64,000 nucleotides of DNA, taken from Diplocarpon mali (Eukaryota > Ascomycota > Leotiomycetes > Helotiales > Drepanopezizaceae). Below, piece after piece: positions 2,986 to 51,900 of the stretch (position 1 is its first letter; the number at the start of each line of letters is the position of its first letter). The DNA lies in contig JAENRP010000024.1 of NCBI GenBank assembly GCA_024741835.1, positions 124,001-188,000 on the forward strand, in the 5' to 3' direction. The translations under genes were made by a program, and so were the position numbers. The notes beneath the pieces were generated by a model. That model was given only the letters and a program-made list of their open reading frames with translations, made no database searches and was not told the DNA's origin.

Positions 2986-2990
2986 CAGAG

Positions 2991-5900
2991 TTGTATAAGG
3001 AATAAGTTATTGCTCCTTTTAAACAATTGTCTTCCTTATATTAGATAAATTAGAGCTTTAGCTTTGAATTTCTAAAAATCCTTAGGAGTAATTATCTTTA
3101 ATTGTTTAAGCGTGATTAAAAATTTTACGATTTCTTTAAAATCACTTAAGTAGTTAAGTGATAAAATCCTCTCATTTGACTCGCGGGCTAAGACCGCGAG
3201 TTAAGTCCTTTTAAGGCGATATATTAATAGATAACCAACTTTATTCTCTACTTACTTATTAATATCTATTTTATCTTCTTTAAATAAATTAAAGGGGTAG
3301 GGGCGAGTTCTTTTTAAAAGGCCGTTTATAGTAGTGTTTTTTATTCTTAAAATATATTTGATTTCAAAGTCTATTAGTCTTATTTAAGTAATCCATTTTA
3401 TTAGTAAGGCTCTAGGTAGGTCGCTTGCAGCTTTATTTAATTATTCTATTAGTACTTTAGCATTAATTTCAAGGATAAAGTAAGTGCTATAAAAGTCGCT
3501 TCTTATCTTTTTCATTGCTTTTAAAGCACCTTTGCATTCCTATTTAATAGTATTATACTTTATCTTCGCAGGATTCTAAAGACTATTTTTAAAGTAAGCT
3601 AAATGTCTTTTCTATTAGCTATTAGCTTATTAAAGGACGGCACCCTATCCGATTAAGCTTATATTAACTATTAGTATAATTGGCCTAGCGTTAGCTTTAT
3701 AATCTATTTTGATCAGATATAGCGCTTTAAGCAACGCTTGCTTTAGTTATTTTATAGCCTCTATTTAAGGTTCTTCCTATTGAAACTCAGCCCCTTTCTG
3801 AAATAAGGTATAAATAGGTACTGCCTTTTTAGCAAAATCTTTAATCCAAATGCGATAGTATACTATAATGCTAATAAACGCATAGGCTTTTGCCATATTA
3901 TTATACCTCTTCTATTTATCGATTTTAAGTACTTTAGTCCTTTAAGGACTTCGGCCATTAGAATTAGTAATAAAACTAACAATTTCTATTAATAGAAGAT
4001 AGTATTATAACTTCGGACTAACTATTGCTTTTGCCCTTTCGAATTATATAAGCACTTAGTCTAGGTTTTAAATATGTTCTATTATAAATTATTATATACT
4101 AAGGAGAACTTCTTTATAATTATAGAATGATCTTAATCCTTTTACTCTTATATTATTTATATAAGGGAGCGCAATATTAGGTATGCAATCTACTAATATC
4201 TTATAGATTACTTAGATAAATTGAGCGATCGAATTTATAGCCTCTTAAGGTAATCTTATTATTTAAAGTAGTTTAAAAGAGGTTTGAATTACTATTATAT
4301 CTTTTGATTTAATATTAAGAATGAATTAGTTATATTTAGAGAAGAAGTTAATAAGAGAGCTGCAGGTTAATCCTACGAATTCATTTGAGAACTTATTTAT
4401 ATTCGAAGGAATATTAGTATCCTTAATAGTTATTTAGTTTATCTCTACTACTACTATTATTAGTCTATAAGTTCCCTTTTCTTTCTTAGCAACTAGGAAC
4501 CATTTGTTCTTATAAGGGCTATTATAAAACTTAAGAATACCTTGCTTTAGCCTATCCTTTAACATTTCGATTACCTTTTCTTAAAGAGCTTTAAGGACTT
4601 TAAATGTTTTCTTTTACTAAGCTTTGTAAGGTATTATCTTAATCTTAATATAAAGTATAACTTCTTTTTAAATCTGGCCTAGTTCTGTTTAATCAAAAGC
4701 TAAGGCGTCCTTTCGATTTGTTAAGGTTTTATAAAGTAGTTTGCGTTCTTACTTTATTAAATTGTCTTTAATTTTTAATATATTAAAACATTCTTTTATT
4801 AGCCGATATCTAATAGGTTTATTAGAAAATCTGCTTATAATAAACTTATCGAATTTGCTACCTAGCTTTAGAGGTCGAAGCCTCTTATCTTATTTAAACT
4901 AATCATTTAAGCCTTTAGGCTTTAAGCTATTAGAGATTCCTTAATCTATTAGTTATACTTTATCTGCTTTGCTTTTATATATAATTTGAATATTAGCTAG
5001 TACTATATTTCTCTACTTCTTTCCTTTTTTATCAAATCCTATAAAACGGTCTAAATTTTCCTTTTTAAAAATAAATAAAAGATTTTCTAAGTTATTAATT
5101 TAAAGTGCGTAAATGGAAATATTATTAATAATTTTATTAGTTTTCACTTATAGGTCTGGCTTATAAGTGGTTTTTAGGTTTTTTAAAATGATTAGTAAAT
5201 TGTCGAAATTTATAAAATAAACCCTCTTCTTTGCCTTATTTTTCTTTTTTCTTAATTATTAATCTAATAAAACGCCGATTATACTATTTTTCAAAATTCC
5301 AGATTTGACTCTTAATCTAGGACCGTAAGTCAAATTGCTATTATTCAAAATTAGCAAACTTACCTTTCTTTTACTATAACTCTTTATTAAGTGCTATCCT
5401 TTACTAGTATTAAGCCTAGCCCTTATACTAGCTAATTGTTTCTTAAAACCTTATTTTAAAATTCAGCTATATCTCTTGCGATAACTATTTATCCTTTTAA
5501 AGATCGATCTATATTTTAAAGATTAGCTTTTATAAGACTATCTTTAAGATAGTTAAATGTTAGCTAAGATTTTAAAATAAAGGGCATTCTTAAAAGAATA
5601 TCATTTAAAGAATTCTCTATTATTAAAAAGTCAATATAATTAATAATTCCTTTAACTTTAACCTTTACATTTTTTACCTATCTATTAAAATTGTATTTCG
5701 ATTTAGAGATAGTTGAATAAATAAGGAGTCGATCGCTAATGATTGTCAATTAAGCCATTTTCGCCACTTTTCTAATTATTGTATTAACTTTTAAATTATA
5801 ATCGATTAGAGCCTTTGCTTTAATTAATTCTTCTATTAAATAAATAATAATAGGGCTTTTTATTATAATTGCTAAACAATTTCAATTAATATTCTAAGAT

Positions 5901-8900
5901 ATTAAAGCTATTACTATAATATTATAATACCTTTAGGTTCTTTCATTTTCTATAATCTAAAGACATTTGATTAAGGCTAAGTGCTTCTTAAAGTTCTTTT
6001 ATATTACAATTTCTATTTCCTTATTATTATTCAAATCTTTAAAGGCAACTAGGATATGCTTTCTTAGCACTTTATTAAAGCGTTTAATCAAACCAAATAG
6101 GTCTTTAAACGTAAGGTTAATTTGCTAAGCTATAACATTCTCTATAGCTTTCTTTATTATAATTGAACTAGCGTATTTATTAATAAATTTTTCCTATTTT
6201 AATATTTATCTCTTTCGCTTAAGGTTAAGGGTCCGCGTAATAACTTTAACTTTTTAATCTTTAAGCTTAAAGCTATCTTCGTCTATTATATCTTTAATCA
6301 ATTCGTTTGCTATATCGGCTTTATCCTCGTTTACTATAGTTCTAGATTATTAGGTGTCTTTTAGCATTTAGACTTTATATTAAGATTCCTAAGTTATATG
6401 TATTGATTTCTGGACTTTGGCTAGTTTTATTAGTATTAGGGGAGTAGTAGATTTAAAAGGACGCTAAGTATTCTAAGGGTTTTTAAATATAGAAGTAGTA
6501 TTAATATTAGCAGATATATTATTATTAATCTATCCTAAGATAAAGATGCCTCTAACTTCTATAGCTATTTGATTAGAAGCTAGGTCTTTGAGAACTCCCT
6601 TAGGTAGGTTGCTAATTAGACTAGTATATATATAAGTTGGAATTTTGGCATTTATATCTATAATATACTATCGTTCGACTAAATTCTTATCCTATTTCAT
6701 ACTATATATTATTATTTAAATAGTCTATAACTATAAGCGATTCTAGTGCTTTTTAATAGGGATAGCTTCTGGCCTAGGATCTCTAATGCAAAGCATCTTA
6801 TACTTATTAATATATATAACCCTAGTGTTAATAAAACGATAGAAAAGAGGGCAATTATTATAATACTTATATAAAGCGCAGTTGGGTTTTTTATTATTGC
6901 AAAAGTTGTAAGTTAGTTGTCTTCTATTACTATTCCCTTAGTATCCTATAGCATTAATATTAGCAAAGTGCTGGTTAGGATTAATTTCTCCTTCTTTAAT
7001 CAATTATTAAGTTCTTATATTAGCTGGTTATTTCAAATGATAAGAAGCAGGAGTCTGGTAATAGGAACTACTATATTAGCTTATAGTAGCCGAGTTTTAC
7101 CTATTACTAAATTAGGGAATATGCTATTTTTCTTATAAAAGATTATTAATCTTAGTTTCTAAGCTTTAGATTCGGAGTTCTGCAAATTGGGTCTTAAGTT
7201 CCTTAATTCTAGGGTTAGATCTTATTCCTAGGTTAGGCCTACGAGTAAAAGGTATAACTATTAGGTTCTTCTTTACCTCCTTTATAACTTCTAAAGCCTT
7301 TGAGTATTCTTAGACCAGGCTCTTGAGGTCTTTAGTATAAGAGGGAGTAGGGGCTTTTTCCTACTTTATAGCATTAATGGTTCTCTTACTAAGATCTGAT
7401 TTTAAAGCAAAGGCCGCGAATTCCTTAAATAAGGCAAAGGTTATAAGGTCTTGCTTATCGATCTTAAAATACTTAATGATCTTATTTCAAAGTCTAATAG
7501 GTAATCTAAGTAAGAAAAGGCGGCCTCTTTTAACTTTGCTAAGTATTTTCTAACTAATTAAAGTATTTGATATATAAGTAAAAGTCTGATAGTAATTCTT
7601 AAGTTCCTTAGGAGTATAAGTAACTAGAACAAATTCCTTTAAGAAAGCTAGGGTATTGCGAATCTGCTATTTGTCAAATTCGTAGAATTCAGATTTAAGG
7701 GCCTTGATAAGGAGTTCTTATAAACTATGAGTTTTCTATTTAGGGAGGGACTTAATAATATCCTTACTTATATAATTATAGTAGTAAGGAAGTCGAGAAA
7801 TCATATCCTCTTATATAATACTAAAATTATAATAAGTTTCCTTATATTGCTTAAGAAAATTAGTAATATTAGCGCTTATAAAGTAAGGAGCATTAAGGGA
7901 ATTAGGAAGGGGAAAGTGACTAGTAATAGCCTTAAATGCGGCTATTATTATTTTATACTAACCGTCTGGGTTAATAGAATCTATAAGGGGCAAAGGGGAA
8001 GCTTTAATATTGTAAGATTAATTGCTAAGAGGAGTACTTCGAAATTCAAAAGGGCTTAAAGAATATTCAAAATCTGAATTAATCTTAAAGTGACTAAGAC
8101 GAGTTTGAAAAGATTTAAATAAAGGGTTAATAAAAAGTTTAAAATTATTATTGTTTTTAGTATTTTCTAATATTAATATTAAAAAAGTAGGTGGTAATCC
8201 TAAGTTGTTTAAGGACGTCTTTTTATCCTCCTACTTATAGGCTAGGCCTAGGAGTAGAATTCCGGATTCTATTAAAAGTTTAATCCGAGTTTATTAAGAG
8301 ATTCTAAGTAGGTACTAAATAGCTAATAAAAGCGTTATAACTAATTATAATAAGATAAGGTTTATTTAATTAAAGACCAATTTCTAAGATAAGGTTTATA
8401 TTTAAGATTCTTCTTAGCCTTTAGGCTAATTCCTATTAGTCCTTAAAATAAAGGGGTCTTTAGAGACGATTTTAAGGCAATTTTTAAAGTTCTATTAAGC
8501 TAAGGCGGCTGAATTATCGGATTCGGATTTTTAAAGATTCTAAAGAGGCACTTCTAATTAGAGTTTACGCTTAATATTACTTAAGTATTCGAAACTACTA
8601 CTATTTAAGATTACTATTATAAGGTTCGCCAAACTTTTCATATTAGGAAGTTGAAAATTCTGAAAATCTTAAAGTTAAGGAAGAAAATAAGGGTTTTTAA
8701 AGCAGAGCTAAAAAGGGAAAATCTAAGGTTATTGATAGTTGCTAAACGAAAATCGATAGTTCTAAGTAATTAGGCAATTAAGGATAAAGGTTTTAGAGTC
8801 GATTAAAATGCTATAAGTGTTTTAAAGACATATTTTAAAGGCCGGTCTCTTATCTGCGAATTAAGAGATCGATAAGGTCGTATAAGGACGGAAATCTCAA

Positions 8901-10440: not shown

Positions 10441-10449
10441 TAGGAATAT

Positions 10450-13400: not shown

Positions 13401-13935
13401 ATATATATAAATGTGACTCTAGTTAGGCTTTAAGCTTGCTATTATTTACTTAATAAGCAATAGCTTATAGAATTGAAAATACTACTTAAACTAACTATAA
13501 AGATCCTTATTTAATAAGATTATCTTCTTCTTAATAAATAAGGAGATATTATAAAGGTATATAGTAGCCTTTATAACCTTTAGCCAAAGGCTTGCTAAAA
13601 GCTTAGCGTAGATCCTCATTTTAATAAAGCGTTTAATCGACTCCTTTCCTATTTGCTCTACGCCTCTATTAGGTTAATATATATAGGTAAGAGTAAGCTT
13701 TAAATTGATTCCTTCCTCTTTTACCTATCTTTAGTACTTTATAAGAGAGTCTTCCCTTAAGGAGATTACTAAAGTGTTATTATTTTGTTTAATCTTATAA
13801 ATCGAAAGCCTATATTAGCGTTTTACCTATACTTTAAAGGCTTAAAGGACTTTTATAACTATATTTCTACCTTTCGATCTTAATAGGAATATCTAAAGTA
13901 TACTACTATACTTATCCTTAATTAAAAGAACTTAT
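10450..13935 (-). pseudogene. copia pol C-terminal half, RIP-inactivated
   Basis: Domain order on the minus strand is integrase core (13930 to about 13300), linker (about 13300-12350), reverse transcriptase (about 12350-11250) and RNase H (about 11200-10450). Catalytic residues are changed in the RIP direction, for example Asp to Asn in YIDN. Stops are mostly TAA/TAG. Family membership is clear from GVEQIGKES, VNAPKDL and YIDNIQVLYK. No active product is possible. Confidence 0.75.
13932..13935. repeat. Target-site duplication of element B, left copy (TTAT)
   Basis: TTAT directly precedes the 5' LTR, and the same four bases follow the 3' LTR at 29716-29719. Keeping one copy joins the two E1 halves in frame. 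Confidence 0.65.
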
Positions 13936-14183
13936 TATAGAGACCTGGGACGGATAGGTCTTGTGATATCTATCACATGATCGGCGCAGGACGGTAGGGG
14001 GATAAAAGGGCCATCTTCTATATATAGAGATAGCGTATATCGCCATAGTACTAAATATACCCTATACTTAGGACTTGTTCCTAATATCTTATCTAAGAGA
14101 GCCTGCTTATAGTACTTCCTCCTCTTTATTTTTAGGTCTTCCCTTAGGCTTATTCCTATATTATCTCCCTTTTAAGTTTTATA
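13936..14183 (+). repeat. 5' LTR of element B (248 bp)
   Basis: It starts TATAGAGACC and ends GTTTTATA (TGTA...TACA before RIP-type changes). It aligns along its length with 29468-29715 and with the LTRs of A and C. Confidence 0.85.
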
Positions 14184-14820
14184 TTAGTAACCTACGTAGG
14201 GATCGATTTCTTAAGATTTCCGTCCTTATATAACTTTATCGATCTCTTAGTTTATAGATAAGAGACCGGCCTTTGAAATACGTCTTTGAAACACTTATAG
14301 TATTTTGATTAACTTTAAAAACCTTATCTTTAATCGCTTAGTTACTTAAAACTGTCGATTTTCGTTTAGCAACTATTAATAACTATAGATTTTCCCTTTT
14401 CGGCTCTACTTTAAAAACCCCTATTTTCTTCCTTAACTCTAAGATTTTCGGAATTTTCAGCTTCCTAATATGAAAAGTTTAGCGAACCCTATAATAGCAA
14501 TCTTAAATAGCGGTAGTTTTAAGTACTTAAGTAATACTAAGCGCAAACTCTAATTGAAAGTGTCTCTTTAGAATCTTTAGAAATCCGAATTTGATAATTT
14601 AGCCGCCTTAGCTTAATAGAATTCTAAAAACTGCCTTAGAATCGTCTCTAAAGACCCCTTTATTTTAAGGACTAATAGGAATTGGCCTAAAGGCTAAGAA
14701 GAATCTTAAATATAAACCTTATTTTAGAAATTTGTCTTAAATTAAGTAAACCTTATCTTATTGCGATTAGTTGCAATACTCTTATTAGCTATTTAATACC
14801 TACTTAAAATCTCTTAGCAA
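14184..14820 (+). other. Leader of element B
   Basis: Sequence between the 5' LTR and the gag frame. A, B and C share the first bases after the LTR (TTAGTGACTTACGC in the less mutated copies), where the primer-binding site should be. I could not match it to a tRNA. Confidence 0.45.
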
Positions 14821-16700
14821 ACTCGGATTAAACTTTTAATAGAATCTGGTATTTTACTCTTAAGCCTGGCTTATAAATAGGAGGATAAAAAGATATCTTT
14901 AAATAACTTAAGGCCGCTACCTACTTTTTTAATATTAATATTAGAAAATACTAAAAATAATATCAATTTTAAACTTTTCGCTAACCCTTTATTTAAATCT
15001 TTTCAAACTCGTCTTAGTCACTTTAAGATTGACTTAGATTTTAAACGTTCTTTAAGCCCTTTTGAATTTTGAAGTACTCCTCTTAGCAACTAATTACGTA
15101 ATATTAAGGCTTTCCCTTTGCCTCCTATAGATTCTATTAACCTAAACAGTTAGTATAAAATGATAATGGCCGCATTTAAGGCTATTACTAGCCACTTTCC
15201 CTTCCTTAGTTCTCCTAGTGCTCCTTACTTTATAAGAGCTAATATTACTAATTTCCTTAAGTAATATAAGGAAACTTATTATAATTTTAGTATTCTATAA
15301 GCGGATATGATTTCTCAGCTCTCTTACTACTATAACTATATAAGCAAAGATATTATCAAATCCCTCTTTAAATAGAAGACGTATAATTTATAGGAACTCC
15401 TTATTAAGGCTCTTAAGTCTAAATTCTAAGAATTTAATAGATAGCAGATTCGCAATACTCTAGCTTTCTTAAAGGAATTTGTTTTAATCACTTAAACTCC
15501 TAAGGAACTTAAGAACTACTATCGGACTTTTATTCGTATATCAAATACCTTAATCAGCTAGAAAATACTTAGCAAAGTTAAATAAAGCCGCCTTTTCTTA
15601 CTTAGATTACCTACTAGCCTTTAAAATAAGATCATTAAGCATTTTAAGATTAATAAGTAAAACCTTATAACCTTTGCCTTATTTAAGGAATTCTTAGCCT
15701 TTGCTTTAAAATCAGATCTTAATAAGAGAACTATTAATACTATAGAATAGGAAAAAGCCCCTACTCCCTCTTATACTAAAGACCTTAAGAGCCTAGTCTA
15801 AGAACACTCGAAAGCTTTAGAAGTTATAAAAGAGGCAAAGAAGAACCTAGTAGTTATACCTTTCACTCGTAGGCCCGACCTAGGAGTGAGATCCAACCTT
15901 AGAATTAAGGAACTTAAGACCTAATTTGCAAAACTTTAAATCTAAAGCTTAGAAACTAAGATTAATAATCTCTTATAGGAAAAATAGTATATTTCCTAAT
16001 TTAGTAATAGATAAAACTCAGCTATTATAAGCCAACCTAATAGTTCCTATTACTAGACTCCTACTTCTTATTATTCGGAATAACCAGCTAATATAAGAAC
16101 GCAACAGCTGGCTGAAGAAGGAGGAATTGATCCTAACTAGCACTCTACTAATATTAATACCATAGGGTACTAAAGAAATAGTAATAGAAGACAACTAACT
16201 TACAATTTTTATAATAATAAAGAACCTAACTACGCTCTATATAAGTACTATAATAATTGCCCTCTTTTCCTTTATTTTATTAATACTAGGGTTATATATA
16301 TTAATAAGTATAGGATGCTTTGCATTAGAGATCCTAGGCTAGAAGCTATCCTTATTAAAAAGCACTAGAATCGCTTATAATTATAAACTATTCGAATAAT
16401 AATATATAGTATAAAATAGGACGAGAATTTAGTCGAACGATAGCGTATTATAGATATAAATGCTAAAATTCTAACTTATATATATATAGGTTTAACTAGC
16501 AACCTATCTAAGGGAGTTCTTAAGGACCTAGCTTTTAATCAAATAGCTATAGAAGTTAAAGGCATCTCCGTCTTAGGATAGATTAATAATAATATATCTA
16601 CTGATATTAATACTACTTCTATATCTAGAAACCCTTAGAATACTCAATATCCTTCTAGATCTACTACTCCCTTAATACTAATAAAACCAGCTAAAGTCCA
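14821..16700 (+). pseudogene. gag of element B, RIP-inactivated
   Basis: One plus-strand frame runs from about 14821, broken mainly by RIP-type TAA/TAG. It encodes a capsid-like region (about 15100-15700: MIMAAFKAITSHFPFL, then ANITNFLKQY), a Pro/Ser/Gln-rich stretch, and a remnant of the retroviral zinc knuckle near 16230-16350. There the pattern Y-x2-Y...P, followed by RMLCIRDPRLEA, matches the CxxC...C and CxGDPR region of fungal gags with Cys turned to Tyr. Two palindromes lie in the frame (14856 and 15865), the second in the usual T-R-x-P-x-x-x-V phase. Confidence 0.7.
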
Positions 16701-17700: not shown

Positions 17701-17759
17701 ATGTTAGTAAAGGAAGGCACTTAGCAAGGAGTTATAGCAAAAGAAAGGTGAGTTTGTCG

Positions 17760-36866: not shown

Positions 36867-38760
36867 AAAACCCGCTAATTCGATTCCTACTTCTATAGCC
36901 TCTTATAGACCTAAGGATAGTAGTTTCTTTAAAGACTTAAAAAGAGATCTAAACTATATAAAGAAGGCCTTACTAAGAGTACTAAACCCCTTGCTCCCTC
37001 TCCTAGCGAAAAGGAACGCTACTCTAAAGCCGGCTTATTAGATTAGCTTAATCTTAGCCTTAGCAATCGGCGCCCTCTACTACCGCTTTACAACTAAGGT
37101 AAGATAAGCTATATAAACTTAAGAACCGGCGCTTAAAGAGTTTATATTTATAAGCTTTATTTACGATCTAAACCGAGAAATCAATCGCCGAGAATCGGTT
37201 AAGCAAGCTGAAATTAGCTCTCTTGGCCTTAGTTCGGCGCTGCAAGCTAAGTATAAGAGTAACAACAAGCTAATAGATCAGAAGCTCTCGCCTTAGTACG
37301 CTAAGTTTAAGAACGTCTTTAGTCGCTAGGCCTTTGACCAACTGCCGGAACCTAGGCTAAGGGTAGATTATAAAATCGAGCTAATAAGCGAGAATAACTT
37401 AATAATCAAACCCTTCTACCGCCTTACCGACGAATAGCTCTTAAAGGTCAAGAGCTATATTCTTAAGAACCTATATAAAGGATTTATCAAAGCTTCAAGT
37501 TCTCCCTAAGTAGCCCTAATCCTCTTTATTAAAAAAGCTAATAGCTCCTTATATCTATACATTAACTATTAGAAACTAAACGCCTTAATAAAGAAAGACC
37601 CTTACCTAATTCCCTTTATTAATAAGATAAAAGTACATATATCGAAAGCTTATGTTTTTATAAAAATCGATATATAACAAGCCTTTTACTATATCTGCAT
37701 ATCAGCTAACGCTAAGGACCTAACTACCTTTTGCACGCGCTATAGGACCTATAAGTATAAGGTTTTACCATTTAGGCTAATAAATAGGCCTGCTACCTTT
37801 TAAAGGTTTATTAACAATATTCTCTTTAAGCACCTTGACGATTTTTACTCTACTTACTTAGATAATATTCTAATTTACTTAGAAAACTCCCTTGACTATA
37901 AGATTTATATTAAGAAGATCTTAGGAATTCTTTAATGCTATAGCCTTTAAGTAGATATTAAGAAAAGCAAGTTTAAGGTTACTAAGACTAGGTTCCTAGG
38001 GTTTATTATCAGAGTTTATAAAATTAAGGTAGACCTTAATAAGGTCTTAGTCATTTAGGAGTAGAAATACGCTAAGAACGTATATAGCGTATAAAGCTTC
38101 CTAAGGTTCTATAACTTCTATCAAAGGTTTATTTAAGGCTATAGTTATATCTGCCGACCCTTAATAGCTCTTATAGGAAACGTTCCTTTTGATTTTAATA
38201 ATACTTATAAGGAAGCTTAGGAAGCTCTGCGCTTAAGGCTCCAAACGACCCCGATTTTATACTACTATTACCCTTAGAAGCAGATAAGGCTTAAGACCAA
38301 CGCCTCCGACGGTATAGTCGCTAGCGTACTCTCCTAACTTTAGGAAGATAAGAACTACTACTCAATTAGGTACTTCTTAAAGACGATAAATAACACTAAG
38401 CTAAATTACCCTATTTATAATAAAGAGCTCTTAGCGATTTTTAAATCGTTCTACTAGTATAAGGCAGAGCTACTTAAGGCCTAGAAAACAGTATATATAT
38501 ATATAGATCATAAGGCCCTTAAGTACTTTATAACAACTAAGGACTTAATAGCCTAGCAGGCTCGCTAGGCGGAGTTCTTTGCTAATTTCAACTTCCTTAT
38601 CATATACCGAATAGGTATAACGAATACGCTAGCTAACACACTCTTATATCGAGACTAGGAGCTGACCCCTCTTAAGGCTAGGAAACGAGCTTTACGCTAC
38701 CAGCAGCTCTTACCTAACGATAAGCTCTCTATAGAAGTACTTGCTACTAAAGGCGATTCT

Positions 38761-38918
38761 ACTCCTGGGCCCGGCCTACGAGTGACTTTAGCGCAGGTCG
38801 ATTCCACTCCCGGGCCCGGCCTATGAGTGACTTTAGCACAGGTCGATTCCACTCCTGGGCCCGGCCCACGAGTGACTTCAGCATAGGTCGATTCCACTCC
38901 TGGGCCTGGCCTACGAGT
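38761..38918 (+). repeat. Four-copy 45-bp array of coding palindromes, RNase H-integrase linker of E2
   Basis: Palindromes at 38761, 38806, 38851 and 38896 are spaced exactly 45 bp (15 codons). Each encodes S-T-P-G-P-G-x-x-V followed by T-x-A-Q-V-D. The array lies in frame between RNase H and integrase. CpG and GGCC are better preserved here than around it. Confidence 0.92.
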
Positions 38919-40560
38919 AACAACCGTGCCAATCGTGCTAATAGAAGCACCTGCTAACCTAACGTCTAGGGTCGAGTATAATATAGTAAGCTACTATATT
39001 ATCGATAAGGTCATTTAAGCTAATAAGACCTCCCTTAAGCTATAGAAGTTCTGAGACAAGGCGCAGAGCTATAGCCTTAACTATAAACTCAGCTAAGGCA
39101 AACTCTTCTTCTAAAGTAGACTTATTATACTATCCTAACCTCCTGAACTGCAAATAGCCTTAATTCGTCATATGCATAAGCAACCTTGCGTCGCATACGC
39201 TAGAATCGGGAAAACAAGGCTTCTAATAGGAAGAAAATACTATTAGAAAAGTCTTAGCAGCGATGTTAGCACTTATATCTAGAACTGTTATTGTTTAAGA
39301 ATAAAAGCTTATTATAATAAGACCCTAGGTTTCCTATAACCCTTGCCAATTCCCGAATAAGCTTACTAACACTTGATAATAGATTTTATAAAGCTTCCGC
39401 TTAACGAACTCGGTTATAATTTTGCCTTTATAATTATCGATAGGTTATTAAAGAAGGCAGTTTCGGTTTTATACTATAATTCGATTGATATAAAAGGCCT
39501 TGCGGAGTTGTTTTTAGTTCACTAGATACGCTATTTTAGCATACTTGACTCGATTCTATTAGATAAAGGCGCTTAATTTGTCTCTTCCTTTTAGAAAGAA
39601 TTCTATTGGATACTAGGTATAAAGGTCAAGCTAACTATAGCCTATAACCCTAACGTCGACGGCTAAACTAAGATTATAAACTAGTACTTAAAATAATGCC
39701 TTAGACTATTCTGCTTATACTATTAAGATAATTAGAGTCGTCTTTTGCCTTTGATAGATATTGCCTAATTGACCTTACCTTATGAATCCCTAGGGCAAAT
39801 TTCCCCTTTCTAAGTGCTAAATGGCTATGAAGCTCGCTCCTCTTAGAATTTAATTAACCTAGAACCTCTATAGATAGCAAATGAGAGAGTAAATCGTAAA
39901 ACGGCGCTCTGTATAGCTACTAAAGCTTAAAAAGTAGTCCAATTCGCTTAATTGTCTCTCTAAGTATAATAAGCTAAAATGAAACGGCTTGCAGATCTCT
40001 ACTATCGGCCAGTTGATTAGACTATAGGAGATAATGTGCTAATTAGTACTAAAAATTGGAAACTGGACCGGCTGAGCTAAAAGCTCTTTGATAAGTGGTA
40101 CGGCCTAGTAAAAGTACTAGAAAAGCTAAGAGAAAGCTAGAAGCTACAATTGCCTAATTCACTCTATTTGATCTACCCTATATTCTACTCCTACTTATTG
40201 CAAAAATACATTCCTAACCTTCTGCTAGGCTAAGCTTAAGAACCTCCGGCTTTAATTAAATTATTGCTAGAATAAGAGGAATAGGAGATAGAAGAAATAA
40301 TTAGATCTTATATTTAAGCTAAGAAGCTCGAATATCAGATTAAGTGGAAAGGAGCTGATAAAGACCTTGAATAGTACCTATGCTCTAATGCTATAACGGC
40401 GCTATATACTATTCGAGACTTCTATCTAAAAAATCCTTAAGCTAAGGGGCCACTAAGGGCGCTATTAAGCTGGCTTAGGTCATATAATAATAGAGTTGAC
40501 GATTATAGGGACCTAAAGGATAATACGCCTATAGATATAACTGCGCAGGCGCAGTTTTTC

Positions 40561-40575
40561 AAAAGGGGGAGGTAG
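40561..40575 (+). other. Polypurine tract of E2
   Basis: AAAAGGGGGAGGTAG directly before the 3' LTR. It also encodes the last residues and the TAG stop of pol. Confidence 0.8.
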
Positions 40576-40830: not shown

Positions 40831-40835
40831 TTTTA

Positions 40836-43800
40836 TCTTAATCTATTTTAAAAGTGTTGGCTAAGGTTATATATTAATCTGCGTTAGCTAAGAATTCCTC
40901 TTTAGAGATTCCCTTTAGTCTTAATTCTTTAGTTAAGAAGTTATTAAATTAGAGAATTCCAAGGGCCACTTAGGTTAAAAGGTTGCTAATAGCATTCGCA
41001 TAAGCTAAAAGGAGTTTTTATTACTCTATATCTCTTAAGGCTATATAGGTCGATTTGAAGCTCTTTAATAATATAATAGCTCTACTATCCTAAGAGAAGT
41101 TTATAACTAGTGCTTATTTATCCTTTATTATAGTAGATAAAACTATTTATGAGTTCTTTAAAGGCATATTACTTATAAAAGATAGGGAGTATAAATAAGA
41201 GAGTTTAATAAGGTATAAGAATTAAAAGGGTATATAAGCTACAATAGGTTTACTATATATATATTAAGGAAATTAGACTTTTTATTTATTATTTAAGGAA
41301 AGTAATAGGAATGCTATAATTAAAGGCCAATTATTAAAAATATAAAATAAATTAAAGCAGGTAAGAATTTAAAGTGATCTTAAAAGATCTATATCTTAAA
41401 TAATAAAGGAGGCGACCTTATTAAAAATGTAAAAATAAGGATTAAAGGAAGGTAAGATAATTGATAAGCTAGGAAATCATTTAGTATTCCTACTTGCGTT
41501 CTTCGGATATTTTAAGAATAATAACTTAAGGTTGCGATTAATTAGGTATTTTAATATTCTTTACTTATAGGACCGGCTTATAGGTTAAGTTGGAAAAATC
41601 TTAGTCTTTATCTAAGGGTTTAAAATTGCTTATATTACTATCGGTTCTTATAGAAGATTCAGAGGTTATATCAATTTCTAATTCGTCTTTTAAAGGGAAT
41701 AAGGTCTAATTATATTAATAAAAGCGCTTTAGTTAATTAGCTGCGAAGGTTCCTTTAATATTAATTCTATTAAGTTCTTAAAGAGAATAGTATCCCTTTT
41801 CTTTCTACTTAGATTTAACCTTAAATAGACTAAGCTATCAATAATCAAGTTTAGTATCTACTAATATATTAATACTTCTTATAATATTATAAACTAAGAT
41901 AAGATCATCTTTTTAAATAGGGTATATTTTAAGTACTTTAAAAGTAGCCTATGCTTCCTTAACTTTTTTCTAATATTATTTCTTTTATAAAATGATTTCC
42001 TCTATATTTATATCTTAGAGCTTAAGTTATTAGCATCTTATTGCAAGCAAATTGGAACGGTTCTGAATTTGACTATAGTCGAATAATCTTTAAATAGGCT
42101 ATTAGGATTTAAAAGAGAGCTATGCCTCTTTACTATAAATAAGGAAAAATAGTATAACTCTAATCGGTTTATAGATTATTATTTAATAAGCAAAGAGTAT
42201 TTTATAAAAGTGTTTTATCTAATTCTTAAATCCTTTATAAGTAACTTTAGATAGCCTATTAAGAATATTACAATATCCTTGCTCTACTATTTTATTAGCT
42301 TTTAAGTTATATACTAAGATTTGAACCCGTTTAATATTACATTTTTATAAAAAAGCTTTAATTACTCTTTTATTTTCAAGGCCTTTATTAATAGTTAGTC
42401 TATTAAAAAGTCTATAGCAATAGACTACGTCTTTTTAAAGGAACTTTGCAATAGATTCAAAGTTAGCAGATCTTAAAGGTCGTCCTTTAGGCTATCCTAA
42501 TAGGTCTTCCTTTATTAAAATAAAATATATAATCCTATTTTCGATTATTAGTACTTATATAATATTAAGACTGACTTTATAAAAAAGGCCTATTAGCTAG
42601 GTTAGGAATAGAGGATTCTCTTTATAATTAGGTTTTCATTTCTAATAAGGGATATAACTTTTTATAAAAGCTTTACAATCTTTAAAAGAACTATTTTAAA
42701 AGAATTTCCTTAAGAGTTAATAGTAGGTAGACTTAGCTCTTTAATAGCCAGTTTCCTTATAAATATCCTAAATAGCCTTAGCCCTTAGTTTTTCATTATT
42801 TAAGTAAAATTATATAAGGAGTAAGTTATCGCTCCTTTTAAATAATCGTCTTCCTTATATTAGATAAATCAGAGCTTTAGCTTTGAATTTCTAAAAATCC
42901 TTAAGAGCAATTGTCTTTAATTATTTAAGTATAATTAAAAATTTCGCGATTTCTTTAAAGTCATTTAAGTAGTTAGGTAATAAAATTCTCTTATTTAACT
43001 TATAGGCTAGGCTTGCGAGTTAAGTCCCTTTAAGGCAATATATTAATAAATAACTAACTTTATTCTCTACCTACTTATTAATATCTATTTTATCTTCTTT
43101 AATTAAATTAAAGGGATAGGGGCAAGTTTTTCTTAAAAGGCCATTAGTAGTAGTATTTTTCATTCTTAGAATATATTTGACTTTAAAGTCTATTAATCTT
43201 ATTTAAGTAATCCATTTTATTAATAAGGCTTTTAATAGGTCGCTTATAGCTCTATTCAATTATTCTACTAGCACTTTAGTATTAGTTTTAAAGATAAAGT
43301 AAGTGCTATAAAGGTCGCTTCTTATCTTTTTCATTACCTTTAAAGTGCCTTTGCATTCTTATTTAATAATATTATACTTTATTTCTATTGGATTTTAAAG
43401 ACTACTTTTAAAGTGAGCTAGATGTCTTTTCTATTAGCTATTAGCTTATTAAAGGATAGTACCTTATTTGATTAAGCTTATATTAACTATTAGTATAATT
43501 GGCCTAGCATCGGCTTTATAGTCTATTTTAATCAGATATAGCACTTTAAGTAACGCTTGCTTTAGTTATTTTATAGCCTTTATTTAAAGTTCCTCCTATT
43601 AAAACTCAGCCCCTTTTTAAAATAAGGCATAAATAGGTACTGCCTTTTTAGCGAAATCCTTGATTTAAATACAATAGTATACTATAATGCTAATAAACGC
43701 GCAAGCTTTTACTATATTATTATACCTTTTCTATTTATCAATTTTAAGTACTTTAGCCTTTAAAGGACTTCGGCTATTGGAATTAGTAATAAAACCAATA

Positions 43801-46800
43801 ATTTCCATTAATAGAAGATAGTATTATAACTTCGGACTAACTATTACTCTTACCCTTTCGAATTGTATAAGCACTTAGTTTAGGTTTTAAATGTGTTTTA
43901 TTATAAATCGTTATATATTAAGGAAAACTTCTTTATAGTTATAAAATGATCTTAATCCTTTTACTCTTATATCATTTATATAAAGGAGCGCAATATTAGG
44001 TATATAATCTATTAGTATCTTATAGATTACTTAGATAAATTAAGCAATCGAATTTATAGCCCTTTAAGGTAATCTTATTATTTAAAGTAGCTTAAGAGGG
44101 GTTTGAATTGCTATTATATCTTTCGATTTAATATTAAGAATGAATTGGTTATATTTAAAGAAGAAGTTAATAAGAGAGCTATAGGTTAATCTTACGAATT
44201 TATTTAAGAACTTATCTATATTTAAAGGAATATTAGCGTCCTTAATAGTTACTCGGTTTATCTTTACTACTACTATTATTAATCTATAAGTTCCTTTCTC
44301 TTTCTTAGCAATTAAGAACCATTTGTTCTTATAAAGGCTATTATAAAACTTAAGAATACCTTGCTTTAGCCTATCCTTTAATATTTCGATTACCTTTTCC
44401 TAAAGAGCTTTAGGGACCTTAAATATTTTCTCTTACTAGGCTTTATAGGATATTATCTTAATCTTAATATAAGGTATGACTTCTTTTCAAATCTAGCCTA
44501 GTTCTATCTAATTAAAAGTTAAAGTGTCCTCTCGATTTATTAAGGTTTTATAAAATAGTTCGCGTTCTTACTTTATTAAGTTATCTTTAATTTTTAGTAT
44601 ATTAAAACGCTCTTTTATTAGCTGATATCTAATAGGTTTATTGGAAAATCTGCTTATAATAAACTTATTAAATTTGCTACTTAGTTTCGAAGGTCGAAGC
44701 TTCTTATCTTATTTAAACTAATTATCTAAGCCTTTAGGCTTTAAGCTATTAGAGATTCCCTAATCTACTAGTTGTACTTTATCAGCCTTGCTTTTATATA
44801 TAGTTCGAATATTAGCTAGTACTATACTTCTCTACTTCTTTCCTTTTTTATTAAATCTTATAAAACGGTTCGAATTTTCTTTTTTAAAAATAAATAAAAG
44901 ATTTTCTAAGTCGTTAATTTAAAGTATATAAATAGAAATATTATTAGTAATTTTATTATTTTTCACTTGCGGGTCCGGCTTATAAGTGGTTTTTAAGTTT
45001 TTTAAAATAATTAGTAAATTATCGAAATTTGTAAAACGAACCCTTTTCTTTACTTTATTTTTCTTTTTTCTTAATTATTAATCTAATAAAATGCCGATTA
45101 TACTATTTTTTAAAATTCCAGATTTGACTCTTAGTTTAAGACTGCGAGTTAAATCGCCTTTATTTAAAATTGGCAAACTTACCTTCCTTTTATTATAACT
45201 CCTTGCTAAGTGCCTTCCTTTATTAGCATTAAGCCTAGCCCTTATACTGATTAATTATTTCTTAAAATCTTATTCTAAAATTTAGCTATATCTCCTACGA
45301 TAACTATTTATCCTTTTAAAGATCGATCTATATTTTAAAGACTAGCTTTTATAAGACTATCTTTAAGATAATTAAATATTAGCTAAGATTTTAAAATAAA
45401 AGGCATTCTTAAAAGAATATCATTTAAAGAATTCTCTATTATTAGAAAGTTGGTATAATTAATAATCCCTTTAACTCTAACCTTTACATTTTTCGCCTAT
45501 TTATTAAAATTGTATTTTAATTTAAAGACAGTCGAATATATAAGAAGTCGATCGCTAACAATTATCAATTAAGCTATTTCTACTACTTTTCTAATTATTA
45601 TATTAACTTCTAAACTATAATCGATTAAAGCCTTTACTTTAACTAATTCTTCTATTAAATAAATAATAATAGGGCTTTTTATTACAACTGCTAAATAATT
45701 TCAATTAATATTTTAAGATATTAAGGCTATTGCTATAATATTATAATACCTTTGGGTTCCTTTGTCTTTTGCAATTTAAAGATATTTAATTAAGGTTAAG
45801 TGCTTCTTAGAATTCTTTTATATTATAATTTCCATTTCCTTATTATTATTTAAATCTTTAAAGGCAATTAGGATATGCTTTCCTAGCACTTTATTAAAGC
45901 GTTTAATTAAACCAAATAGGTCTTTAAATATAAGGTTAATTTGCTAGGCTATGATATTCTCTATAGCTTTCTCTATTGCGGTTAAACTAGCGTATTTATT
46001 AATAAATTTTTCCTATTTTAATATCTGCCTCTTTCGCTTAAGGTCAGGGGTCTATACAATAACTTTAACTTTTTAATCTTTAAGCTTAAAGCTATCTTTA
46101 TCTATTATATCTTTAATTAATTTATCTACTATATTGGCTTTATCCTCGTCTACTATAGTTCTAAACTATTAAGTATCTTTTAGCATTTGGACCCTATATT
46201 AAGATTCTTAAGTTGCATATATTAATTTCTGGACTTTAGCTGGTTTTATTAGTATTAAAGGAGTAGTAGATCTAAAAGGACGCTAAGTATTTTAAGGGTT
46301 TCTAAATATAGAAGTAGTATTAATATTAGTAGATATATTATTATTAACCTACTTTAAAATAGAAATACCTCTGACTTTAGTAGCAGTCTGGTTCGAAGTT
46401 TGGTTAATAAGCACTCCTTTAGGTAGATTGCTAGCTAAACCTATATATATATAAGTTAAGACCTTAGAGTTGATTTCGATAATATGCTTCTATTTAGCCA
46501 AATCCTTATCCTACTTTATACTATATATTATTATTTGAATAATCTATAGCTATAAATGATTCTAGTGTTTTTTAATAAGGATAGCATTTGACCTAGGATC
46601 TTTAATATAAAGCATCTTATACTTATTAATATATATGACCTTAGTATTAATAAAACAATAGAAAAGAGGATAGTTATTATAATACTTATATAAAGGGCAA
46701 TTAGGTTCCTTATTATTGCAAAAGTTGTAAGTTAGTCTTCTTCTATTACTATTCCCTTAATACCCTATAGTATTAATATTAGCAAAGTGCTAATTAGGAT

Positions 46801-48751
46801 TAATTTCTTCTTCTTTAGTTAACTATTAAGTTCTTATATTAGCCGGTTGTTTTAAATAATAAGAAGCAAGAGTCTAGTAATAAGAACTACTAAGTTGGCT
46901 TATAGTAGCCGAGTTTTACCTATTATTAAATTAAGGAATATGCTATTTTTCCTATAAGAGATTATTAATCTTAGTTTTTAAGCTTTAGATTTGGAGTTTT
47001 ATAAATTAGGTCTTAAGTTCCTTAATTTTAAGGTTAGATCTTACTCTTAGGTCGGGACTGCAAGTGAAAGGTATAACTACTAGGTTCTTCTTTACCTCCT
47101 CTATCACTTCCAAAGCCTTTGAGTGTTTTTAGACCAGGCTCTTAAGGTCTTTAGTATAAGAGGGAGTAAGGGCTTTTTCCTACTCTATAGCATTAATAGT
47201 TCTCTTATTAAGATCTGATTTTAAAGCAAAGGCCGAGAATTCCTTAAATAAGGCAAAGGTTATAAGGTCTTACTTATTAATCTTAAAATGCTTAATAATC
47301 TTATTTTAAAGGTCAATAGGTAATTTAAATAAGAAAAGGCGGCCTTTTTCAACTTCGCTAAGTATTTTCTAATTGATTAAAGTGTTTAATATATAAGTAA
47401 AAGTCCGATAGTAGTTCTTAAGTTCCTTAGGAGTTTAAGTGATTAGAACAAATTCCTTTAAGAAAGCTAGAGTATTACGAATCTACTATTTATTAAATTC
47501 TTAGAATTCAGACTTAATAGCCTTAATAAGGAGTTCTTATAAACTATGCGTTTTCTATTTAAAGAGGGATTTGATAATATCCTTACTTATATAGTTATAG
47601 TAGTAAAGAAGCTAAGAAATCATATCCTTTTATATAATACTAAAATCGTAATAAGTTTCCTTATATTACTTAAGGAAATCAGTAATATTGGCTCTTATAA
47701 AGTAAGGAGCGCTAGGGGAACTAGGGAGGGGAAAGTGATTAGTAATAGCCCTAAATGCAGCTATTATCGTTTTATACTAACTGTTTAAGTTAATAGAATC
47801 TATAAGAAGTAAAGGAGAAGCTTTAATATTGCGAGATTGATTGCTAAAAGGAGTACTTTAAAATTTAAAAGGGCTTAAAGAACGTTTAGAATCTGAGTCA
47901 ATCTTAAAGTAATTAAGATAAGTTTAAAAAGATTTAAATAAAGGGTTAATAAAAAGTTTAAAATTATTATTATTTTTAGTATTTTCTAATATCGATATTG
48001 AAAAAGTAAGTAGTAGTCTTAAGTTGTTTAAAGACGTCTTTTTATCCTCTTACTTATAGGCTAGGCTTAGGAGTAGAATTCTGGATTTTATTAAAAGTTT
48101 AATCCAAGTTTGCTAAGAGATTCTAAATAGGTATTAAATAGCTAATAGGAGCGTTGCAACTAATTGTAATAAGATAAGGTTTACTTAATTAAGGACTAAT
48201 TTCTAAGATAAGATTTATATATAAGATTCTTTTTAGCCTTTAAGCTAATTCCTATTAGTCCTTAAAATAAAGGGGTCTTTAAAGACGATTCTAAGGCAGT
48301 TTTTAAAGTTCTATTAAGCTAAGGCGGTTGAATTATTAGATTCAGATTTTTAAAGATTTTAAGAAGGTACTTCTAGTTGGAGTTTGCGCTTGGTATTACT
48401 TAAGTACTTGAAACTACTGCTATTTGAGATTGCTATTATAAGGTTTATTAAACTTTTTATATTAGAAAGCTGAAAATTCCGAGAATCTTAAAGTTAAGGA
48501 GAAAAAATAGGGGTTTTTTAAAGTAAAGCTAAAAAGGGAAATTCTAAAGTTATTAATAATTGCTAAACGAAAATCGATAGTTTTAAGTAATTAGGCGATT
48601 AAGGATAAGGTTTTTAAAGTCGATCAAAATGCTATAAGTATTTTAAAGATGTATTTTTCAAAAGGCCAGTCTCTTATCTATAAACTAAGAGATTGATAAG
48701 GTCGTATAGGGATAGAAATCTTAAGAAATCGGTCCTTGCGTAAGTCACTAA
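40836..48751 (-). pseudogene. gag-pol and ORF2 N-terminus of element C, RIP-inactivated
   Basis: Read on the minus strand: gag (about 48090-46450), protease (about 45750-45300), RT/RNase H (about 44450-43000), integrase (about 42500-41800), then the start of the unknown ORF2 (about 41200-40836). The same order and frames as B are visible with a different set of transitions. The plus-strand ORF 47546-47788 is antisense to gag. Confidence 0.72.
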
Positions 48752-48997: not shown

Positions 48998-51900
48998 CTA
49001 TCTATATTTAAAGTTCTTAGCGGCTACTATTGCTATAAATATGCAAAAGGTATTTATGCGAACTATTAGCGCGAATATATTAAAGTAGTCTTCTCTATAC
49101 TATTAGGAGAAGCCTCTAGCTATAAGCCTTGCCTTATAACATTCTAAGGTCCTATTTATATATATTTTAATTATAAAGACCTACTTTATTAATACTAGGT
49201 TTATATCCTTTAGCGTTAGTTCCTTTATTTATATACCATTTGTAATAAGAGAGCTTATCTCCTTTTAAATTGCCTTATTCTATATTGCTTTATTCTTCAG
49301 ATCGTTAATAGCTTTATTATACGTCTTTAGAAGAGAGATTTTCATTATTCCCTTAGCGGCTAGGAACGCATTATCTTTATCGAAGCTCTATTGAAGTTCG
49401 AGCTTATAGATCCTATGTGCTATTATAGTTTAGATACGCTTAGACTTGCGTTTGTTTAAGGTATCTTTTAGTTTTAGGTCTCTATTTTTCTTTAAAGGTA
49501 TAGGTTTAGCTATAGGTTCTATAGGCTTATTATTTAAGGAACCGCTTTCTAGTAATAGAGGCTTATTATTACTTATACCTATTTTAGGAATATCCTTTAC
49601 TATAGGTGCTTTAATTAAAAGGATGATAATATTAAAGTTATTCTATACTTTAAGCAGTTTGCGGATAATAGGAATAGTCTATTCGGCCTTTAGGCGACTA
49701 ATAGGTTATTGATTAATAGGTACGCTTAATATACTTAAGCTAAAAGAAAGGGGTTATTAGTTTAGCTTAATAGTATTACTATCAAGTGGTATACCTTGCG
49801 AATCTTTAGGTATATAAAGCTTTAAGGATAGCTCTTCCTTATTTTAAGATTTATCGAACTTAATTACTAAGGATATAATTACTTACTTTAAATCTAGCGT
49901 ATATACTATTTATTACTTTATTATCTATTTAATATATTTAATAAATATATACTCTTTACCTTAGTCTATTAGCTTTTTACTCTTTATACCTGCGGGCTAG
50001 GACTTTAGGCTAATATAGGAGTAGTAGACGCTTTTAAAGACGCAGATATAGTCTAGGCTTAGTTTCAATTCGAAATATGCCTTATATAGTAATATTTGGG
50101 TGCTATTAACTATTAGTCTACTACCTATCTTATTTTATAAGTATACATTTGCCTTAACCGCAAGGTCTTAGAATTCTAATAGTAAGTTAGCATCTTATAG
50201 TAAAGTGCGATAATTAGTCTCTACTTGCTAGATGCTTCGCTTAATAATACTATTCTAATAGGAACCTTTGTATATTATAGTCGATTTATAATAAACTCCT
50301 TATTTTGCCTATTTATTAAGCTTTGCCCTAATCTTTAATATATTATTAGACTTAATAGCTATTAGCTTTAACTAGGTCTAGCGTTCCTCTATCACTTTTT
50401 AAGTTTTTAACTTTTCTATAAGCTTAGATTTAGTCCTAGTGTAAATAGTCTATATCTATTAAGTAGAGTTATCTACTATTTGAGAAAACTAGTTATTTCC
50501 TTTGATTAAGGTTATAAATAGTCTAGTAGTATTAATAGATATTAGCGCTAGTATCGAATCTTTTTATAAACTAAGCTTAATTTGCATCCGATTTTAAAGT
50601 TTTATTAGCTTGCAAATTCGGCATATTAAGCGATCCTTTAGTACTTAGATCTTCTATTTTAAGATTAAGACCTTATGCAAGCCCTTTAATTTCTTTAGCC
50701 TTAAATGCGCGAATCTTTTATATATTAGCTAATACTTTAATAGGCTTTCGGCTTTTAATAGCTTTAGTAGCCTATTATTAGTCGATACTTTATTATTAGC
50801 GGCTAGAAAGGAATAGTAATAGCAGTTTAAAGTTTTGCCATTTTCTAATTATAAGCCTAGCTTAGGAGTCGTTTTTAATAAAACCGCAAGATCTATTCGC
50901 AGTCTTAGCTTAGGAGTCGAATACTTAGAAATAGCAAGATCTACTTGCGGTCTTAGCTTAAGAGTCATTTTTAATAAATCTGCGAAGTTCACTTATAGTC
51001 CTAGCTTAAGAGTCATTTTTACGAATTTCACTTGCAATCTTAGCTTAAGAGTTATTATTAGCAAATCTGTAAAATCTACTTATAGGCCTAGCTTAGGAGT
51101 CATTTCTATTAAATTCACTTATAATCTTAGCTTAAGAGTTATCTTTAAGGATATATTGCATTCTACTTATAGTCTTAGCTAAAGAGTTATTTTTATAAAT
51201 TTCACTTGCAATCCTAATTTAAAAGTCTATCTATTCTCCTTATCCTCGCTTAATTATATTAGGGTAAAGAGTGTACTTTCCTTAAAGGAATCCACTTATA
51301 GGTCTGGCCTAAGAGTCAATTTTTATAATATCACTTTTAAGATAATATAAAGTCTATCTTTGATTTTAACTTTAAAGATTACTTTATAGTTATTATTTAT
51401 AAACTATATGAATTAATTATTAAAAACTCTTATATAATTCAACTTTACATAAATCTTATAGTTAGATAAAAGATTAATACTTAAGCTAAGTATAAGGAGA
51501 ACATTTTATAAAAGGAAAGAAACGCTAGTGATATTCATCTTTACTATACTTATTAAGTCTGTATATAACCTTTTACTATCAACTTTAATAGAGCGCCTTT
51601 TTATTTTAATAAGCGGGCCTTTAAATAGGTAGGATTTATTAATTATATATATTATACAATTAGTATTACTATACTAATTAGATTTAAAGATCTTATAAAG
51701 ATCGGCTTTTAAAATGTAGGTATTTTTATTATAATTATTATTTAAATTATCAAAAGTGGATTTAAGTTTAAATAACCTACTATTATTATTAAAGGTATTT
51801 GCTAAAGTTTTAGCTAAATAGCCTTTTCCTTTGCCTTTCCTTAGTAGTTATAGCCTTTGATAGGATAAGGGCAGTTTACTTTTTAACTTCTGCTTTAATT

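What the first reader, a model, noticed from the sequence alone, without database searches (positions are those of the whole stretch)
3179..51316. A 23-bp palindrome that spreads inside retrotransposon coding sequence and is translated
Forty-two copies of one near-perfect palindrome lie inside coding regions of the two Ty3 lineages (A/B/C and E2) and of copia E3. In every frame I could check except two (14856, 19910) it is read in the same phase as T-x-x-P-x-x-R-V. The consensus has no stop in that phase. It sits between domains (protease/RT, RNase H/integrase, gag N-terminus, several sites in the unknown ORFs). This is the behaviour of Rickettsia palindromic elements, selfish inserts tolerated in proteins. 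I do not recall a description of such an element in fungal LTR retrotransposons.
Basis: partly seen in the sequence, partly recalled or inferred. Interest (0 to 1): 0.9.

Follow-up and report, generated by a model that had tools for sequence, protein, structure and literature searches.

The report
Hairpin repeat parasitizing fungal retrotransposons
A short GC-rich hairpin sequence, present about four thousand times in a fungal genome, sits in the loose joints and untranslated ends of several unrelated retrotransposons and is often translated as part of their proteins, as if it were a tiny parasite of these larger parasites.

Summary
The 42 copies are real. They collapse to about 18 sites: three copies of one Ty3 element share sites, and others are tandem arrays. 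The genome (49.4 Mb; probably Diplocarpon coronariae) holds 3,968 places at one mismatch or fewer, against 1 for the reversed pattern. The unit is about 37 bp, oriented and imperfectly palindromic. Of 35 sampled places 34 lie clearly in repeats (one weakly); about 30 kb of mostly gene-rich DNA has none.

It occurs in unrelated elements (two Ty3 lineages, a copia-like family, others), in both orientations: inter-domain linkers, gag termini, untranslated ends. Of 9 better-supported coding sites 8 use one phase (10 of 12 with weaker cases). Arrays vary in whole codons. Third codon positions are the constrained ones, so the DNA, not the peptide, is conserved. Of 12 aligned relatives from other sources, two carry TREPG(P/A)RV and ten show no such motif.

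It is not purely a coding insert: a copia-like 3' end and another family's LTR-adjacent DNA carry it. No empty site was found in the one form tested, so mobility is inferred. RPE-like behaviour is supported; RPE membership is not. The mechanism (copying during reverse transcription) is unproven.

The parts
3179..3201 (-). palindrome, Ty3 A copy 1, site a6 (RNaseH-IN linker), phase +1
   Evidence: same site as 19910 and 42998
5146..5168 (-). palindrome, Ty3 A copy 1, site a4 (PR-RT linker), phase 0
5308..5330 (-). palindrome, Ty3 A copy 1, site a3 (PR-RT linker), phase 0
7224..7246 (-). palindrome, Ty3 A copy 1, site a2 (gag C-terminal part), phase 0 (frame support weaker)
8233..8255 (-). palindrome, Ty3 A copy 1, site a1 (probably 5' leader upstream of gag)
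13933..22098 (+). Ty3 A element, copy B (copy C 40831-49000 and copy A1 2981-9177 on the minus strand)
   Evidence: self-BLAST 88%; protease, RT and integrase read by eye in frames 0 and 2
14856..14878 (+). palindrome, copy B, site a1, phase +1 or untranslated leader
   Evidence: (L068)
15865..15887 (+). palindrome, copy B, site a2, phase 0 (frame support weaker)
17781..17803 (+). palindrome, copy B, site a3, phase 0 (NLTRGPRLRVKS)
17943..17965 (+). palindrome, copy B, site a4, phase 0 (TTYRPDPRVKN)
19910..19932 (+). palindrome, copy B, site a6, phase +1 (LAVLAYES)
21345..21367 (+). palindrome, copy B, site a7 (C-terminal tail), phase 0 (frame support weak)
22608..22630 (.). palindrome, segment 22089-22945 (site b)
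   Evidence: few stops in phase 0 on both strands
23994..24016 (.). palindrome in repeat family 22494-28046 (E1), coding status unknown
24879..24901 (.). palindrome in E1
26524..26546 (.). palindrome in E1
26710..26732 (.). palindrome in E1
27940..27962 (.). palindrome in E1
28762..28784 (.). palindrome beyond the part of E1 matched by L003
33078..33100 (.). palindrome, second copy of site b (inverted copy of 22608)
34880..40569 (+). Ty3 E2 element coding region (gag, protease, RT, RNase H, integrase, Tf2-1-like SH3)
   Evidence: tblastn P0016/P0010/P0001; Pfam RVT_1 and RNaseH over cut-off, H2C2 and SH3 below it
35024..35046 (+). palindrome, E2 gag N-terminus, phase 0 (intact in P0016, motif at residue 52)
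36799..36821 (+). palindrome, E2 PR-RT linker array unit 1, phase 0
36844..36866 (+). palindrome, E2 PR-RT linker array unit 2, phase 0
38761..38783 (+). palindrome, E2 RNaseH-IN linker array unit 1, phase 0
38806..38828 (+). palindrome, E2 RNaseH-IN array unit 2
38851..38873 (+). palindrome, E2 RNaseH-IN array unit 3
   Evidence: RNA hairpin z -3.6
38896..38918 (+). palindrome, E2 RNaseH-IN array unit 4
41563..41585 (-). palindrome, Ty3 A copy C, site a7
42998..43020 (-). palindrome, copy C, site a6, phase +1
44965..44987 (-). palindrome, copy C, site a4
45127..45149 (-). palindrome, copy C, site a3
47043..47065 (-). palindrome, copy C, site a2
48052..48074 (-). palindrome, copy C, site a1
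50847..50869 (+). palindrome, E3 array unit 1
   Evidence: phase 0 open over 119 codons
50895..50917 (+). palindrome, E3 array unit 2
50943..50965 (+). palindrome, E3 array unit 3
50991..51013 (+). palindrome, E3 array unit 4
51030..51052 (+). palindrome, E3 array unit 5
51078..51100 (+). palindrome, E3 array unit 6
51117..51139 (+). palindrome, E3 array unit 7
51165..51187 (+). palindrome, E3 array unit 8
51204..51226 (+). palindrome, E3 array unit 9 (degenerate, PWM score 13.7)
51294..51316 (+). palindrome after the E3 array (90 bp from unit 9)

Best explanation
It is a short mobile hairpin element, about 37 bp, with a GC-rich core and weaker AT-rich arms, that lives inside LTR retrotransposons. 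Shown: it is present in several unrelated retrotransposons of one fungal genome, in both orientations, with no shared bases beyond about 7 bp outside the 23-mer, at positions where an insert should do least harm (linkers between protein domains, gag termini, untranslated ends); copies within a family are inherited with the host element, and arrays differ in number of in-frame units. Inferred: it moves between co-resident retrotransposons, most likely when reverse transcriptase stalls at the RNA hairpin and switches template inside a shared particle; purifying selection on the host element then leaves copies in the tolerated phase and place. In the open phase it adds a flexible peptide, (D/N)-S-T-(P/R)-G-P-G-P-(R/G)-V, which the polyprotein tolerates.
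For: Abundance: 3,968 places against 1 in the control; a narrower exact pattern gives 19 stretches in the prokaryote collection (257 Gb) and 1 in IMG/VR, none related to the retroelement proteins by tblastn. Several hosts: Ty3 E2, Ty3 A, a copia-like family (two linkers and the 3' end), E1, E3, an LTR-adjacent family. Unit: position -2 is a pyrimidine in 44 of 44 arms of 22 hand-picked sites; conservation fades by about -8. DNA-level constraint: in 92 distinct copies not chosen by the search pattern, positions left free by the collecting pattern are Y at 6 (92), K at 9 (92), M at 15 (91), R at 18 (92), while 5, 12 and 19 take all four bases; the window alone (35) and loci fetched by an RT profile (16) agree. 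Orientation: pair 5/19 is CC in 28 and GG in 9 of 92. Tolerance: 8 of 9 better-supported coding sites in one phase (P 0.001 at 1/3), 10 of 12 with weaker ones; array spacings under 60 bp all multiples of three, 31 of 31; 1 to 4 units at the E2 RNaseH-IN site in five copies. Hairpin: RNA fold z -1.6 to -3.8 for the 7 copies folded. P0006, from an unnamed source, has TREPGPRV elsewhere in the same linker.
Against: No empty site: 0 matches to one guessed unfilled form against 81 to the flank with the palindrome's last four bases, at one site; no recent jump is shown. No clear target-site duplication. Arms show no compensatory change: pair 9/15 is GC 39, TC 28, GA 15, TA 9 of 92, about what independence gives, so stem selection is not proved. 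Both Ty3 lineages carry it in the PR-RT and RNaseH-IN linkers, which could partly be common descent. The copies are not phylogenetically independent, and up to about 4 of the 35 window hits of the loose pattern may be chance (reversed-window control 4). The phase of the E3 array rests on stop counts alone.
Confidence: 0.57

Rival explanations
1. The peptide is what matters: TPGPGPRV/TRGPGPGV is a flexible spacer or processing site that retrotransposon polyproteins in this fungus have repeatedly gained between domains; the palindrome is a by-product of Gly-Pro codons.
For: Position between gag, protease, RT, RNase H and integrase; one dominant phase; in-frame array variation.
Against: Third codon positions 6, 9, 15, 18 are restricted in 91-92 of 92 copies while second positions 5 and 19 are free, the reverse of protein selection; copies in a copia-like 3' end, near an LTR-like repeat (spacing 61 bp) and in phase +1; unrelated proteases would have to share one site (inference).
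Confidence: 0.12
2. A DNA or RNA cis-signal (binding site of a host or element factor, RNA packaging or pausing signal) is selected in these retrotransposons and arises or is kept at many places.
For: DNA-level conservation, hairpin, several copies per element in translated and untranslated places.
Against: 25 of the 30 best-scoring RT loci (L016-L045) have none within about 3.5 kb; not seen in ten of twelve aligned relatives from other sources; number and places differ between elements.
Confidence: 0.14
3. Ordinary recombination or ancient common descent: the motif existed in an early LTR element of this lineage and was passed on by element-to-element recombination; nothing moves by itself.
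For: Same kinds of linkers in both Ty3 lineages; filled at all 81 matched copies of one site; the a1 site maps to the palindrome of L001, a 66% identical relative.
Against: No shared base beyond about 7 bp outside the core among 22 sites; presence in Ty3 and copia-like elements, in both orientations; different place within the linker in P0006.
Confidence: 0.13

Closest known systems
Rickettsia palindromic elements (RPE)
   Same: Repeated palindromic DNA; about half of the copies lie in protein genes as in-frame fusions with one conserved peptide (passages of PMC10969869).
   Different: RPEs are about 150 bp and enter unrelated metabolic genes of a bacterium; this unit is about 37 bp and was seen only in repeats, mostly LTR elements, also in untranslated ends; none in about 30 kb of mostly gene-rich DNA.
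GC clusters of yeast mitochondrial DNA (GC42)
   Same: A 42-nt GC-rich palindrome in AT-rich DNA, high copy, stem conserved, copying through RNA suspected (passages of PMC4478555).
   Different: Mitochondrial; here nuclear and inside LTR retrotransposons, often in linkers of translated polyproteins, and copies are inherited through host transposition.
Palindromic repeats of Fusarium mtDNA and double-hairpin elements of Allomyces
   Same: Short palindromes whose presence is optional between relatives (passages of PMC7218506).
   Different: Mitochondrial and, in the passages seen, intergenic.
PARCEL repeats
   Same: Palindromic DNA encoding a tandem protein repeat, in some taxa tied to mobile elements (abstract and first part of one section of PMC2996958).
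   Different: 25-residue amphipathic repeat; sequence and length do not match.

Membership tests
Rickettsia palindromic elements | repeated palindrome inside protein-coding sequence | tested here: met
Rickettsia palindromic elements | read mostly in one phase without stops | tested here: met
   8 of 9 better-supported, 10 of 12 overall; exceptions a1 and a6
Rickettsia palindromic elements | length about 150 bp | tested here: not met
   shared unit about 37 bp
Rickettsia palindromic elements | lies in unrelated host genes | tested here: not met
   0 copies in window 53.8-64 kb, L049, L050; 34 of 35 sampled places clearly in repeats, L087 weakly. A small sample of host DNA.
Rickettsia palindromic elements | orthologues without the insert | tested here: inconclusive
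   ten of twelve relatives show no motif in the linkers they cover, but linkers vary in length, so no exact empty site
GC clusters (GC42 type) | GC-rich palindrome of about 40 nt in AT-rich DNA | tested here: met
GC clusters (GC42 type) | presence/absence at homologous places | tested here: inconclusive
   0 unfilled in one guessed form, 81 filled, one site of one genome; other strains not available
GC clusters (GC42 type) | mitochondrial location | tested here: not met
   contig with LTR elements and MutS-domain ORFs
MITE or other DNA transposon derivative | target-site duplication | tested here: inconclusive
   flanks of 22 sites inspected; only the copia-like 3' site shows a possible repeat TGATTTT

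The most novel reading that the evidence does not exclude
A hyperparasite of retrotransposons: a 37-nt nuclear hairpin that has no life outside LTR elements and moves only among them by template switching of their own reverse transcriptase, using the linkers of their polyproteins as safe harbours.
Probability: 0.3. Interest if true: 0.82.

Novelty: new variant of a known kind. Interest (0 to 1): 0.64.

Why it matters
Short mobile palindromes tolerated inside proteins are known from Rickettsia, and GC-rich hairpins that proliferate are known from mitochondria. A nuclear counterpart of about four thousand copies that rides on and inside LTR retrotransposons would give a second, eukaryotic case with thousands of natural experiments, and would let one ask directly how reverse transcription creates, moves and expands very small elements and which protein linkers tolerate them.

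Tried and rejected
Chance: rejected. Conserved ancestral domain: rejected by alignment of 12 relatives. Known RNA family: none at gathering score. Compensatory stem evolution: looked for, not found. A first version of the base-by-position table (146 copies) was biased, because many loci had been fetched with a pattern that fixes the classes at positions 6, 9, 15 and 18; it was redone without those target copies (92 copies) and holds. Pfam on six frames of 22.9-31.8 kb and 49.0-53.4 kb: nothing. Pfam on two short pieces, one of them the putative copia RNase H: nothing, so the copia names are my reading. Protein search with the double-motif region of P0016: only itself among 122 candidates. Protein search with element A: 20 weak, uninformative hits. 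Viral and prokaryote collections: no related element. Paper searches for such an element in fungal nuclear retrotransposons; nothing in the listings seen describes it, but the library holds only open-licence papers and the listings are capped.
Full report
WHAT IS THERE. A PWM scan of the window finds 45 hits to the palindrome. Twenty Markov shuffles give 0-8 hits on both strands, the window 90. The window is G000:C24:124001-188000 of a 49.37 Mb, 676-contig genome. The class pattern ACTCNYRGKCYNRGMCYRNGAGT has 3,968 places there with at most one mismatch; the pattern read backwards has 1. Proteins at 88-95% identity to an E2 copy are named Diplocarpon coronariae, so the genome is probably that fungus or a near relative; this is inference from a repeat family. 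In passages of the D. coronariae genome paper, LTR/copia make 20.7% and Ty3 5.7% of strain DC1_JKI (PMC11527701). The window's density of 18 places (<=1 mismatch) in about 50 kb would need about 11 Mb of such DNA to give 3,968, the same order.

COPIES AND SITES. Self-comparison shows three copies of one element (88%), called Ty3 A here, and a Ty3 element E2 at about 33.6-40.8 kb (RT and RNase H by Pfam over cut-off). Sites shared by the three copies, and tandem arrays, reduce 42 copies to about 18 sites. Places were sampled twice from the list: the first 15 loci (L001-L015) and 20 that I picked from the later listed places on C6-C12 (L071-L090). Of these 35, 34 lie clearly in repeats: Ty3 A or a relative, E2, a copia-like family, E1, E3, or an LTR-adjacent family; L087 has only 60-69-bp matches to other repeats. 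None of about 30 kb of mostly gene-rich DNA (window 53.8-64 kb, L049, L050) has a copy.

THE UNIT. In 22 sites, one representative each chosen by hand, the arms extend beyond the 23-mer: position -2 is T or C in 44 of 44 arms, -3 in 40 of 44, and conservation fades by about -8. A loose pattern that leaves positions 5, 6, 9, 12, 15, 18 and 19 free finds 146 distinct copies in the window and L001-L090. Many of those loci were fetched with a pattern that already fixes the classes at 6, 9, 15 and 18, so I dropped the target copies: 92 remain, with Y at 6 in 92, K at 9 in 92, M at 15 in 91, R at 18 in 92, and all four bases at 5, 12 and 19. The window alone gives 35 copies and the same picture (one exception at 15); the reversed window gives 4 hits; loci fetched by the RVT_1 profile give 16 of 16 at each of the four positions. 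Pair 5/19 is CC in 28, GG in 9, and a Watson-Crick pair in 10 of 92, so the palindrome is imperfect and has an orientation. In the usual phase 6, 9, 15 and 18 are third codon positions and 5 and 19 second positions, so what is conserved is DNA, not peptide. Variation at the other positions was limited by the pattern to C/T and G/A, as repeat-induced point mutation would give; TA/AT is 1.48 in the retroelement part and 0.78 in the gene part. The 7 copies folded form hairpins, z -1.6 to -3.8. The arms do not covary.

WHERE IT SITS. E2: gag N-terminus, PR-RT linker, RNaseH-IN linker, all phase 0; intact in P0016, P0010 and P0011. Copia-like family: between a zinc-knuckle-like stretch and a protease-like DTGAS stretch (L055, TREPGPGV and TRGPGPGV) and before an RT-side KRGRPxGSKNK stretch (L015, TPGLGPRV), phase 0, and in the 3' end by a polypurine-like tract in 15 of 20 loci that I took from the 54 places of the unmutated form. 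The copia names are my reading of motifs from memory; a Pfam search of one piece found nothing. Ty3 A: gag, twice PR-RT, C-terminus in phase 0; RNaseH-IN in phase +1 in the four copies looked at (window 3179, 19910, 42998 and L012); and a site upstream of the gag ATG. Phase tally: 8 of 9 better-supported coding sites (E2 three, copia-like two, a3, a4, E3 array; against a6), 10 of 12 adding a2, a7 and a1; P 0.00097 and 0.00054. The E3 array's frame rests on stop counts. Sites whose frame could not be told (b, the E1 sites, 28762, 51294) were dropped before this count. Spacings below 60 bp are all multiples of three (31 of 31), 32 of 34 below 130 bp, in the window and the loci held; the later LTR-adjacent loci L071 and L086 have 61 bp, as expected of untranslated DNA.

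RELATIVES. Among the 120 listed of 1,872 homologues of the E2 protein, the motif [ST]..P[GSA].RV occurs 8 times in 5 proteins (shuffles 0.52, reversed 0): three D. coronariae proteins, P0001 and P0006. In the alignment of 15, P0001 has LTREPGARVES in the RNaseH-IN linker and P0006 STREPGPRVKE in the PR-RT linker, some 60-80 alignment columns from the E2 array; the other ten, including P0014 of Drepanopeziza brunnea, show none in the parts they cover.

DYNAMICS. E2 copies have 1, 1, 2, 3 and 4 units at the RNaseH-IN site (L021, L027, L043, L038, window). At the copia-like 3' site, one guessed unfilled form has 0 matches, and the right flank joined to the palindrome's last four bases has 81. So copies are inherited with the host element and the gains look old. 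Of the 30 best RT loci of the genome, 25 have no copy within about 3.5 kb at two mismatches or fewer, so other Ty3 lineages are free of it.

READING. One explanation has to cover: many unrelated hosts, both orientations, a 37-bp unit without shared flanks, DNA-level conservation, and a place and phase that spare the host. A mobile hairpin that depends on retrotransposon replication covers them best. That it moves, and how, is inference; template switching of reverse transcriptases at hairpins is general knowledge (recalled), and copying through RNA was suspected for the yeast GC42 palindrome (passages of PMC4478555).

Noticed in passing
L046 (G000:C74:101001-110000): A Ty3 element in which no palindrome was found (its RT region open in three long pieces) is nested inside a copia-like element that carries palindromes; the copia-like sequence stops near 1220 and resumes near 7582.
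   Followed up: partly
L048 about 4641-4841: A roughly 195-bp insert interrupts an E2 copy in the PR-RT region with a 5-bp overlap of the flanks, homologous to window 53295-53440 and to the ends of L071/L075/L085/L086: probably a solo LTR of another family.
   Followed up: partly
window 2255-2278: A different, perfect 24-bp palindrome CTTATGCGCAATATTGCGCATAAG (whose output was cut).
   Followed up: no
window 31865-32756: Tandem duplication of a 449-bp unit, 89% matches, in an AT-rich repeat.
   Followed up: no
window 7-1299: A mutated Ty3 integrase and Tf2-1-like SH3 region, 32-36% identical to the E2 relatives, without a palindrome.
   Followed up: partly
window 53890-63760: Gene-rich island: a 778-aa ORF with weak, below-cut-off kinase matches and two ORFs with MutS domains on the minus strand, probably exons of one MutS homologue.
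   Followed up: no
L051-L070, copia-like 3' end: Tandem polypurine-like units AAGGGGTGA, each followed by a T-run of variable length, precede the palindrome, which sits in the last unit.
   Followed up: partly
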